The notes under the pieces were generated by a model. It had not been told where the DNA came from and made no database searches. It saw only the letters and a list, made by a program, of their open reading frames with translations. Source: Agathobacter sp. (GTDB lineage: Bacteria; Bacillota; Clostridia; Lachnospirales; Lachnospiraceae). From it: 41,153 bases of DNA. Shown here in pieces: positions 3,727 to 16,536 of this stretch. How positions within the stretch are numbered: the first letter of the stretch is position 1; the number at the start of each line of letters is the position of its first letter. The stretch is taken from positions 1-41,153 of the forward strand of contig JALEZW010000002.1 in NCBI GenBank assembly GCA_022772675.1, in the 5' to 3' direction. Made by a program: the position numbers and the translations under genes.

Positions 3727-4575
3727 TTATTTGATAATTTTATATTTTATCTTATTTTTCTTAGCATACTTATGAGCATATGAATTTTTTTTGCATTTGA
3801 TAGTTATTTCGTCACAGAACTTAAATGCATCTTTTTCAATGAATTTCACGGAATTTGGTATTGTTATACTTTTTAAATTCCTACAACTATAAAATGCCCA
3901 TGTTTCAATGGATTTCACAGAATTTGGTATTTTAACACTTGTTAAATTAAAACAGCAGTTAAATGCACTACCTCCAATAGATTTCACGGAATTTGGTATC
4001 TTAATACTTGTTAAATTTTCACAACCTCCAAATGTCCAGAGTTCAATAGATTTTACGGAATTTGATATTGTAATATCTGTTAAATTGATACATTCGGAAA
4101 ATGCATGTTGCCCAATAGATTTTACGGAATTGGGTATTTTAATACTTGTTAAACTGGTACAGAAATCAAATGCTGCGTCACCAATAGATTTCACGGAATT
4201 TGGTATTGTTATACTTTTGAGACGGTAACATTTATAAAATGCATCATTTCCAATAGATTTCACGGAATTTGGTATTGTTATACTTTTTAAATTACCACAT
4301 CCATGAAATGCATTATCTCCAATAGTTTTAATACTCTTGTCAATAATTACATTTTCCACTTTGTCACTTACTTCATCTAATATAGTGTGAACTTCAAACG
4401 AAGTAAGTGAAGTTTCACCAACTATTTCAGCCTTTCCTTCACCGTCCCAGCTAACCACAGCAGTTGTTCCATCAACCTCAACATTTACTCCCGCCTTTAC
4501 CTCCTGAGATGATACCAGCGTGATAGCAATAATTGATAATACCAATACCCCTAACCTTTTTATCAGTTTTTCCAT
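3727..4575 (-). CDS. BspA-type leucine-rich-repeat secreted protein
   Basis: A 282-residue secreted protein. An N-terminal signal peptide (residues 1-28: MEKLIKRLG, hydrophobic core, cut near VKA-G) is followed by a short beta-rich region and then eight nearly perfect 23-residue LRR_5 repeats (about residues 90-262) of the form ITIPNSVKSIGxxAFxxCxxLxS. It ends in the typical basic tail (YAHKYAKKNKIKYKI). BspA-like repeats form curved solenoids used for surface adhesion and protein binding, often in gut and oral bacteria and in mobile islands. There is no LPXTG or membrane anchor. The repeats are so alike that recent expansion is likely. A Big_2-like tail lies just upstream on the same strand, which suggests that a pair of surface proteins was inserted here. 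Confidence 0.85.
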   Translation of the reverse strand: MEKLIKRLGVLVLSIIAITLVSSQEVKAGVNVEVDGTTAVVSWDGEGKAEIVGETSLTSFEVHTILDEVSDKVENVIIDKSIKTIGDNAFHGCGNLKSITIPNSVKSIGNDAFYKCYRLKSITIPNSVKSIGDAAFDFCTSLTSIKIPNSVKSIGQHAFSECINLTDITISNSVKSIELWTFGGCENLTSIKIPNSVKSIGGSAFNCCFNLTSVKIPNSVKSIETWAFYSCRNLKSITIPNSVKFIEKDAFKFCDEITIKCKKNSYAHKYAKKNKIKYKIIK

Positions 4576-14943: not shown

Positions 14944-15099
14944 ATGAGCATACAGGAAAGAATGAGGATGTGCAGGCTGATTGAACAGATGGAGCATCAG
15001 AAGGAATACAGCAAAAAGATTGGTCTTGAGAATCGGTCGACCTTTTGCGAAGTAAGGATGAACGATACTTACGGGAATATGGAGGATATGGAAAAATGA
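14944..15099 (+). CDS. 51-residue small conserved protein
   Basis: A short gene: MSIQERMRMCRLIEQMEHQK, then EYSKKIGLENRSTF and a variable tail ending NMEDMEK. GGAGGAG lies about 8 bases before the ATG, and the TGA overlaps the ATG of the membrane-protein gene in ATGA, so the two are translationally coupled. The basic-helical opening and the KIGLENRSTF block look conserved in small Lachnospiraceae proteins of unknown function. A short single-helix protein of this kind could bind nucleic acid or the small membrane partner, but nothing in the sequence decides it. Confidence 0.6.
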   Translation: MSIQERMRMCRLIEQMEHQKEYSKKIGLENRSTFCEVRMNDTYGNMEDMEK

Positions 15100-15317
15100 T
15101 TACATTTATGATTTGTCTTGCATTGTTAGCAGTTTTGTTCTGGGTAGGATTTGCTGTAACAGGCGCATTGTTAAAAGCCTGTCTGTGGCTGTTTATCCTT
15201 CTGCCGATCGGAGTGGTATTGTGTGTGCTGGGAGCGGTTCTCTGCTGTACCCTGATTCTGATACCGGTGGGGGCGAAGGTTTTTATGGCTGGTATTCATG
15301 TGATTCTGCCGGGATAG
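15096..15317 (+). CDS. 73-residue membrane protein with two helices
   Basis: The ATG at 15096 overlaps the previous stop (ATGA), which fixes the start; upstream codons of the same frame belong to the preceding gene. Nearly the whole protein is hydrophobic: helix 1 about residues 3-26 (MICLALLAVLFWVGFAVTGA), helix 2 about 30-60 (LFILLPIGVVLCVLGAVLCC). It has almost no soluble part. It resembles small Lachnospiraceae membrane proteins with no known role. A hairpin (CGAAGC 15371-15376 with GCTTCG 15396-15401) lies downstream. Confidence 0.65.
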   Translation: MITFMICLALLAVLFWVGFAVTGALLKACLWLFILLPIGVVLCVLGAVLCCTLILIPVGAKVFMAGIHVILPG

Positions 15318-15425
15318 ATACGAGAGGGGAGATTATGTACTGTCTGTATTCCACAGTGGTTCCAGACATGCGAAGCTTCTCACTAAATATGACATGCTTC
15401 GTTACGGGTGGAATTGAGAAATTTG

Positions 15426-15689
15426 GAGAATCACCCGTACAATGAACCGGGGCTGTGCGGGCAAAATTGGACATTATGAAAAATCACCCGTACAACGAGC
15501 CGGAACTGTACGGGTGAATTAAGCATTATGAAAAATCACCCGTACAATGAGCCAAAACTGTGCGGGTGAAATTGAGCATTATGAAAAATCACCTGCACGA
15601 AGAGCCGAAACTATACGGGTGAAACTAAGCATTATGAAAAATAATCCGTACAACGAGTCGAAATTGTATGGGGGAAGTCGGATAATTGG
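15426..15689 (+). repeat. five tandem 52-53 bp hairpin repeats, each with a 13-codon mini-ORF
   Basis: Five head-to-tail units lie at 15426-15478, 15479-15530, 15531-15583, 15584-15636 and 15637-15689; a half-unit may precede at about 15400-15425. Each has a palindrome, best in unit 2 (CACCCGTACA ... TGTACGGGTG, perfect 10-bp stem). The last bases of each unit plus the next unit read ATG-AAA-AAT-CAC-CCG-TAC-AAC-GAG-..., giving MKNHPYNEPELYG and stop in unit 2, MKNHPYNEPKLCG in unit 3, MKNHLHEEPKLYG in unit 4, and a longer version in unit 5. Unit length is not a multiple of three, so the mini-ORFs lie in changing frames. No Shine-Dalgarno site precedes them. The rest of 15318-15915 holds only this array, AT-rich sequence and the hisH promoter. 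Confidence 0.8.
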
Positions 15690-15809
15690 AAAATAACCCT
15701 GCCAAAATCCCTAACCGAATTAGCATCTTCTGTTAAAATTGTTCTGCCCTATCAATTAGGATAAGATTTTTTGTATAAATATTTTATCATCCAGGTGAAA
15801 TATAAATTG

Positions 15810-15838
15810 TCGACAAGGTGCTCTGGGTGTGGTATGAT
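15810..15838 (+). promoter_or_regulatory. promoter of hisH-hisF-ung
   Basis: TCGACA (15810-15815, one base off the -35 consensus), a 17-bp spacer and TATGAT (15833-15838) preceded by TGG make an extended -10 promoter. A small perfect hairpin (AAGCCGT-gag-ACGGCTT, 15858-15874) follows in the leader; it has no T-run. Confidence 0.65.
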
Positions 15839-15915
15839 TAGCACATATGAGACTCCAAAGCCGTGAGACGGCTTAAATACTGGAAAAACGAGGCTATGAA
15901 TGGAGATGACAACAA

Positions 15916-16536
15916 ATGATTGCAATTATTGACTATAATGCAGGAAACTTAAAGAGTGTGGAGAAGGCTCTTCATTATCTGGGAGAGGATTGTGTGATTA
16001 CCCGTGACTTTCACGAGATTGAGGCAGCAGACAAGGTGATTCTTCCGGGAGTTGGCGCATTTGGGGATGCGATGGAGCAGTTGAAGAAATATGAGCTGGA
16101 CAAGGTAATTCACGAAGTGACGGCAGAAAATAAGCCCTTTCTCGGTATCTGCCTGGGACTTCAGCTTTTATTCGAGGGCAGTGATGAGAGCAGTGGAGTA
16201 GAGGGACTGCACGTTTTAGACGGGCAGATTTTAAGAATTCCGGATTGCCCGGGACTTAAGATTCCCCACATCGGATGGAATTCCTTAAAACTTATCAATG
16301 ATGGAAGACTGTTTCAGGGACTTACTCCGGAGCCATATGTTTATTTTGTACATTCCTATTATTTAAAGGCTTCCGATGAGAAAATCGTGAAGGCGACGAC
16401 GGAGTACAGCACCACGATTCACGCATCTGTGGAAAGCGGCAATGTATTTGCCTGTCAGTTTCATCCGGAAAAGAGCGGTACTGTCGGACTTTCTATTTTA
16501 AAGAATTTTGCTAAGATCAAGGAAGGAGACCGATAA
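15916..16536 (+). CDS. hisH: imidazole glycerol phosphate synthase, glutaminase subunit HisH
   Basis: A 206-residue class I glutamine amidotransferase that releases ammonia from glutamine for HisF in histidine biosynthesis. It opens [18 protein letters not shown]; the nucleophile cysteine is in [12 protein letters not shown] (about residue 79), and the His-Glu pair in CQFHPEKSG (about 181-183). Its TAA overlaps the ATG of hisF by one base, so the two subunits are made together. The other his genes are not in this window. Confidence 0.97.

What the first reader, a model, noticed from the sequence alone, without database searches (positions are those of the whole stretch)
15426..15689. Tandem 53-bp hairpin repeats that each encode a 13-residue peptide
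Five head-to-tail units each combine a 10-bp palindrome with a start-to-stop mini-ORF (MKNHPYNEPELYG in the cleanest copy). Seen directly: the stem is kept in unit 3 by a G-U wobble and in unit 5 by a shift plus wobbles. One leucine codon varies only silently (CTG, CTA, TTG) and the first glutamate stays Glu in all copies (GAA or GAG). Because the unit is 52-53 bp, the mini-ORFs lie in different frames, so this is not one repetitive protein. No Shine-Dalgarno site is seen. Either structured RNA or palindromic DNA is the selected object and the peptides are a by-product, or this is a multi-copy small-peptide or attenuator device before hisH.
Basis: partly seen in the sequence, partly recalled or inferred. 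Interest (0 to 1): 0.72.

Follow-up and report, generated by a model that had tools for sequence, protein, structure and literature searches.

The report
Tandem inverted DNA-site arrays between genes
Upstream of a histidine gene lies one of about a dozen scattered arrays, found so far only in this bacterium and one close relative, that look like rows of paired DNA-recognition sites rather than genes for tiny peptides or an RNA switch.

Summary
The repeat is real. Half-sites L (CACCCGTACA) and R (TGTACGGGTG) alternate at window 15401-15674. It belongs to a family of arrays scattered through this genome and one same-genus genome, G018; I placed 28 elements in the two (13 + 15). A model of the unit found none in the 34 other same-genus genomes searched, and an exact pattern hit 1 of 397 family genomes, the own one.

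Comparing arrays re-phases the unit. The constant part is about 41 bp, GTACGGGYGAAA-n-AAA-n-AAAA-n-CRCCCGTAC.

The peptides are a by-product: 18 of 154 left half-sites carry a start-to-stop mini-ORF, 3 of 5 in this array. Half-sites show little or no co-variation as stems. No array lies at hisH in G018, so it is no conserved his attenuator.

Best reading: a BIME-like, lineage-specific intergenic array of double-stranded DNA sites for an unidentified protein. No RAYT was found. Main rival: tandem minus-strand terminators.

The parts
15401..15674 (+). Whole array by half-sites: R L R L R L R L R L R
   Evidence: Half-site chain; TRF 15403-15676; covariance model matches
15401..15441 (+). Unit 1 (R-21-L), degenerate R, no in-frame ATG
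15454..15494 (+). Unit 2 (R-21-L)
15507..15546 (+). Unit 3 (R-20-L)
   Evidence: exact family pattern at 15508-15545
15559..15599 (+). Unit 4 (R-21-L)
15612..15652 (+). Unit 5 (R-21-L), degenerate L
15665..15674 (+). Last R half-site, degenerate
15442..15453 (.).
   Evidence: information content
15476..15517 (+). By-product mini-ORF MKNHPYNEPELYG
15528..15569 (+). By-product mini-ORF MKNHPYNEPKLCG
15581..15622 (+). By-product mini-ORF MKNHLHEEPKLYG
15319..15802 (.). Stretch without homology to G018 at either flank; contains the array
   Evidence: left homology ends at 15318 (G018:C21), right homology starts at 15803 (G018:C10)
15096..15317 (+). Left neighbour, 73-aa hydrophobic protein; a 96% identical copy lies elsewhere in G018, with no array in the some 740 bp between it and the contig end
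   Evidence: no Pfam family
15810..15838 (+). Promoter-like site of hisH, downstream of the array, inside the region shared with G018
   Evidence: consensus scan only; homology from 15803
15916..16536 (+). hisH (glutamine amidotransferase class I)

Best explanation
It is one member of a lineage-specific family of intergenic arrays of about 41-bp inverted-repeat DNA units (GTACGGGYGAAA ... AAAA-n-CRCCCGTAC) joined by 12-bp junctions. I infer that each half-site is read as double-stranded DNA by a symmetric (dimeric) protein. Half-sites recur at 22 and 30-31 bp, close to 2 and 3 helical turns (10.5 bp per turn, recalled), so they would face one side of the helix and could be bound cooperatively along the array. 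Shown: the units, the spacing, the conservation pattern, near-confinement of the half-site word to arrays, and different unit numbers in the two species. Inferred: the protein, same-face binding, growth by unequal recombination or slippage, and a structural or selfish role like that of BIMEs. It is not a his-specific device.
For: Over 19 of 24 array consensuses (five G018 ones with a likely ortholog in G000 dropped) half-sites hold 1.39 (R) and 1.51 (L) bits, the outer 12 bp 0.17 bits, and inner A-tracts reach 1.9 bits. L to R is 22 in 111 of 133; R to L is 31 or 30 in 139 of 146 (the chaining allowed only +/-2). Within-array shuffles: L-R pairing 8.496 versus 8.482 of 10, p 0.32; R-L standard pairs p 0.30. 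Across arrays Watson-Crick cells exceed expectation, and G-U and A-C cells are both depleted (R-L: G-U 93 of 113.8 expected, A-C 98 of 119.5; L-R: 80 of 94.7 and 104 of 116.6), as expected of DNA rather than of one RNA strand. The 12-mer GTACGGGYGAAA lies in arrays at 17 of 18 places in G000 and 50 of 50 in G018, and occurs once in four relatives together. Some arrays share a position in both species with other unit numbers, e.g. beside a sigma-factor gene one unit (C63) versus five (G18_C20).
Against: No cognate protein is identified and no binding was tested. Isolated exact sites, usual for a regulator, are nearly absent. R-L Watson-Crick pairing within arrays is slightly above shuffles (p 0.03), and shuffles across arrays give p 0.0014 (L-R) and 0 of 5000 (R-L) for Watson-Crick pairs. 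Anchoring on half-site scores inflates their bits, though not those of the A-tracts. A-tract spacing of 8-9 bp is not in helical phase. On the minus strand most units resemble intrinsic terminators. Array ends do not settle the unit phase: R-first is 20 of 25 at the loosest threshold but 15 of 24, 13 of 23 and 11 of 22 at stricter ones. The 19 consensuses are not all independent: G18_C53 and G18_C59 have near-identical units and abut contig ends, so they may be one array.
Confidence: 0.5

Rival explanations
1. Tandem intrinsic terminators for minus-strand transcription: each L-12-R hairpin read on the minus strand is followed by a U-tract, and the array blocks read-through or antisense transcripts.
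For: On the minus strand 71% of 131 L-R hairpins have 5 or more T in the next 9 nt, against 0% on the plus strand, with median dG -13.5 kcal/mol. One unit of the window array passes a terminator scan. Minus-strand folding z is -6.2. Exact copies of the stem occur singly in other bacteria, a few with a T-run right after it (e.g. L034, L035, by eye).
Against: Gene orientation does not fit: the gene on the 3' side reads towards the array on the minus strand in 14 of 25 cases and lies on the plus strand in 11. The 12-nt loop is long and mostly kept at 12 although its sequence is free. Stems are not compensated within arrays for L-R pairs. The A-tracts beside R and in mid-unit are unexplained.
Confidence: 0.22
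2. Neutral satellite DNA: slippage-made tandem repeats spread by chance, with no recognised part.
For: Unit number differs between the two species and units within an array are often near-identical. Only two genomes were found to carry them.
Against: Neutral drift should erode all positions alike, but conservation between arrays is very uneven (half-sites against outer junctions, Mann-Whitney p 4e-6; partly inflated by anchoring).
Confidence: 0.14
3. Structured RNA or regulatory leader (RNA device, type III antitoxin-like repeat or his attenuator).
For: Both strands fold better than shuffles. R-L Watson-Crick pairing is marginally above within-array shuffles (p 0.03) and clearly above shuffles across arrays.
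Against: RNAalifold gives no consensus pair; no covariation above shuffles in the 42-unit alignment; no Rfam match at the gathering score (best sub-threshold E 0.67). The flanking genes annotated differ from array to array. Absent at hisH in G018. The one ToxN gene found in this genome has its own 33-bp repeat upstream.
Confidence: 0.09
4. Multi-copy small-peptide genes.
For: Three of five units of the window array read ATG to TGA.
Against: 18 of 154 left half-sites overall; in the related array C72a 0 of 9 have an in-frame ATG; no third-position bias.
Confidence: 0.02

Closest known systems
BIME-2 / clustered REP arrays (bacterial interspersed mosaic elements)
   Same: Extragenic, dispersed, regularly spaced elements in alternating orientation, several repeated in tandem (BIME description from the abstract and passages of PMC2817692).
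   Different: The repeated element is a 10-12 bp non-palindromic half-site, not a 20-40 bp palindrome; no GTAG or CGTC tag (tags as in passages of PMC3733652); no Y1/RAYT transposase found in either genome.
Intrinsic transcription terminators
   Same: Minus-strand hairpin followed by a U-tract in most units.
   Different: Several in tandem on one strand, 12-nt loop, no matching gene orientation.
DNA uptake sequences paired as terminators (mentioned in a passage of PMC2267715)
   Same: Short non-palindromic word in close inverted pairs.
   Different: Uptake words are scattered singly in very many copies (recalled); here 17 of 18 (G000) and 50 of 50 (G018) exact copies lie inside arrays.
Type III toxin-antitoxin RNA repeats (ToxI)
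   Same: Short tandem intergenic repeat (recalled).
   Different: The neighbours annotated are not toxin genes; the ToxN of this genome has a different 33-bp repeat.

Membership tests
REP/BIME | Regularly spaced repeats in alternating orientation (PMC2817692, passages) | tested here: met
   R and L alternate; L-R 22 in 111 of 133, R-L 31 or 30 in 139 of 146
REP/BIME | Extragenic and dispersed | tested here: met
   26 of 27 arrays overlap no called gene, one overlaps a gene end by 27 bp (own simple gene caller)
REP/BIME | REP itself a 20-40 bp palindrome tagged GTAG or CGTC (PMC3733652, passages) | tested here: not met
   Half-site consensus GTACGGGYGAAA, no such tag in the consensus
REP/BIME | Usually more than 100 copies per genome (PMC2817692, abstract) | tested here: inconclusive
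   54 model matches at E<=0.01 in each genome; 157 half-sites in G000 and 155 in G018
REP/BIME | RAYT / Y1 transposase in the genome | tested here: not met
   0 of 2 genomes at E<=1, 10 of 14 control genomes ring; genomes 90.9% and about 80% complete
REP/BIME | Bound by gyrase, IHF or DNA polymerase I | not testable with these tools
   -
Intrinsic terminator | Stable hairpin followed by a U-tract | tested here: met
   Minus strand only: T>=5 in 9 nt in 71% of 131, dG<=-8 in 77%
Intrinsic terminator | Lies at the end of a transcript of that strand | tested here: inconclusive
   14 of 25 arrays have a gene reading towards them on the minus strand, 11 do not; no transcript data
Structured cis RNA | Compensatory base changes | tested here: not met
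   83.5% paired versus 83.4% shuffled; no RNAalifold pair; within-array p 0.30-0.32 for standard pairs, against p 0.03 for R-L Watson-Crick pairs
his attenuator | Conserved upstream of his genes | tested here: not met
   No array at G018 hisH; homology starts at 15803
Type III toxin-antitoxin | Toxin gene of the ToxN kind next to the repeat | tested here: not met
   In the two genomes ToxN was found only at G000:C45, with its own repeat
Peptide-coding repeat | Frame and start-stop kept across copies | tested here: not met
   18 of 154

The most novel reading that the evidence does not exclude
A new kind of dispersed multi-site DNA element: rows of helically phased paired half-sites, present in one narrow bacterial lineage and bound by a dedicated, still unknown protein that organises the chromosome or moves and amplifies the array, without a RAYT.
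Probability: 0.2. Interest if true: 0.75.

Novelty: new variant of a known kind. Interest (0 to 1): 0.45.

Why it matters
Tagged REP families are reported mainly from Proteobacteria (abstract of PMC3733652) and many are tied to RAYT transposases (PMC2817692). A family with a BIME-like layout but non-palindromic half-sites and no RAYT found, in what is probably a Lachnospiraceae (record title of the G018 contigs), would offer a narrow, countable case for asking what recognises such arrays and how they grow and spread. It also warns against reading peptide genes or attenuators from one array: comparing many arrays re-phases the unit.

Tried and rejected
Peptide device, RNA device, his attenuator and type III antitoxin: see rivals. 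RAYT: negative twice. Viral contigs, exact pattern: 0. Plasmids and phages, blastn: 0 and 0. Exact stem pattern in genome contigs: 14 stretches; L032 and L036 are the G018 arrays; the other 12 are single hairpins, a few with a T-run after the stem and one apparently inside a gene (by eye). DNA-uptake-like scattered words: rejected. Unit phase from array ends: only suggestive, depends on the threshold. L and R consensus of one array are not clearly more alike than between arrays (p 0.07). A HisH tree did not resolve whether G000 and G018 are sisters. Literature: searches on layout, family and unit length held no paper that, by its title in the listing, is on this repeat (one search listed 15 of 18). 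A search for the letters listed 20 of 46 papers; by title I took them for unrelated sequence matches and opened none. One search found the REP papers. Papers seen in passages only: PMC2817692, PMC3733652, PMC2267715.

Mistakes corrected: minus-strand loci were not turned, so the L110 and L111 text, its upstream matches for minus-strand loci, and the tree are void; one search repeats both with turned loci (G005 gave only 21 residues there and was left out of the tree). One search is a recount made while checking this report. L143 was fetched and not used.

Full report
What is there. The window holds a tandem repeat of period 53 (52 once) at 15403-15676. Read as half-sites L (CACCCGTACA) and R (its reverse complement), it is R L R L R L R L R L R at 15401-15674. 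Three of the five L-R pairs carry a clean ATG-to-TGA 13-residue ORF; unit 1 has no in-frame ATG and unit 5 reads on to 20 residues.

A family. The own genome (G000, 2.8 Mb, 73 contigs) has further arrays of the same half-sites with other spacers. A covariance model of 42 units from six arrays gives 54 matches at E<=0.01 in G000 and 54 in one same-genus genome, G018. It gives none in the other 34 same-genus genomes or the 24 same-order genomes of that run, which used stricter filters. An exact R-L pattern hits only the own genome among 397 of the family; G018 is not in that list. I placed 28 elements, 13 in G000 and 15 in G018. G0_C59 is weak, G0_C63 is a single unit, and five G018 elements are cut by contig ends; two pairs of these (C53/C59 and C56/C9a0) may each be one array split by the assembly.

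Anatomy. L to R start distance is 22 in 111 of 133 and R to L 31 (98) or 30 (41) of 146 (tolerance +/-2 by construction). With one consensus per array, 19 of 24 used (five G018 ones with a likely ortholog in G000 dropped), R holds 1.39 bits, L 1.51, the outer 12 bp 0.17, and the inner 21 bp 0.89 with three A-tracts, the outer two up to 1.9 bits. Over 88 exactly spaced units the consensus is tGTACGGGtGAAA.....aAAa...aAAAA.CACCCGTACA. Anchoring on half-site scores inflates the half-site bits but not the contrast between A-tracts and junctions. Array ends (R first, L last) agree with this phase clearly only at the loosest threshold.

DNA or RNA? For the 42-unit alignment, paired cells are 83.5% against 83.4% shuffled, and RNAalifold predicts no pair. 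Over all placed arrays, within-array shuffles give p 0.32 for L-R and 0.30 for R-L standard pairs; R-L Watson-Crick pairs alone give p 0.03. Shuffles across arrays give p 0.011 and 0.028 for standard pairs and lower for Watson-Crick pairs, so arrays differ in matching L and R variants; but G-U and A-C cells are both depleted by similar shares, which points to DNA rather than to one RNA strand. No Rfam family matches at its gathering score, and the best weak match has E 0.67. Against this, on the minus strand 71% of 131 L-R hairpins are followed by a U-tract, so tandem terminators remain the main rival. Gene orientation does not support that: of 27 arrays, 3'-side genes are minus in 14 of 25 known, and with both sides known the layout is convergent 8, both plus 7, both minus 4, divergent 3 of 22.

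Peptides. 34 of 154 left half-sites have an in-frame ATG in the spacer and 18 an ORF that closes within the unit. Among units 2-5 of this array and of G18_C20, variable columns by codon position are 9/6/9 and codon-pair differences 35 synonymous, 127 non-synonymous. The HPY...YG-stop frame follows from half-sites 22 bp apart.

Place. Left of the array the window matches G018 only up to 15318, at G018:C21; to the right it matches from 15803 on, at G018:C10. Neither place in G018 has an array, though the left one lies some 740 bp from a contig end. The stretch 15319-15802 is thus specific to G000 in this comparison and sits at a synteny break. A promoter-like site of hisH lies at 15810-15838, downstream of the array and inside the shared region. 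Other arrays seem to hold orthologous positions in both species (C72a/C36b and C53/C9a by both flanks; C72c/C36a by one flank; C53b/C56+C9a0 across a contig break; C63/C20 on the sigma-factor side only), with unit numbers that differ where arrays are whole.

What recognises it? A Y1/RAYT transposase was not found in either genome; they are 90.9% and about 80% complete. The 12-mer GTACGGGYGAAA occurs 18 times in G000, 17 in arrays, and 50 times in G018, all in arrays; among four relatives it occurs once. So it is neither a scattered uptake word nor, by exact sites, an ordinary regulon. The layout (alternating orientation, two spacers, extragenic) resembles BIMEs (PMC2817692, passages), but the REP palindrome, the tag and the RAYT are missing, so I do not file it as a BIME.

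Verdict. A real, lineage-restricted family of intergenic arrays, best read as rows of double-stranded DNA sites for an unknown symmetric protein (0.5), with minus-strand tandem terminators next (0.22). The peptide and attenuator readings should be dropped.

Noticed in passing
G000, e.g. C40:8405-8467; 41 matches in G000, 18 in G018, some overlapping on both strands: A second, separate dispersed hairpin repeat (GTCAGAAC...CCTGCAAGCAGG...GACCC) of about 50-63 bp; five arrays (C31, C40, C53b, C72b, G18_C2b) have one within some 400 bp; several copies sit near contig ends.
   Followed up: partly
G000:C45:47087-47596, locus L147 1353-1451: A ToxN-family toxin gene with a 33-bp x 3 tandem repeat just upstream, a likely type III toxin-antitoxin pair, unlike the arrays.
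   Followed up: partly
window 3823-4329: A 69-bp period repeat inside a 282-aa minus-strand ORF (3727-4575); 69 bp is 23 codons, so probably a repeat protein.
   Followed up: no
window 15319-15802; G000:C63 versus G018:C20: Two arrays coincide with synteny breaks between the two species; arrays may be recombination points or just assembly-prone.
   Followed up: partly
L142 (G010 hisH upstream): In G010 the stretch matching window 15798-15849 and that matching 15851 onward are about 1.4 kb apart, with text between them that looks by eye like a tyrosine-recombinase gene.
   Followed up: no
L087:9875-10672: A 265-aa protein without a Pfam family starts 38 bp from array C72b.
   Followed up: no
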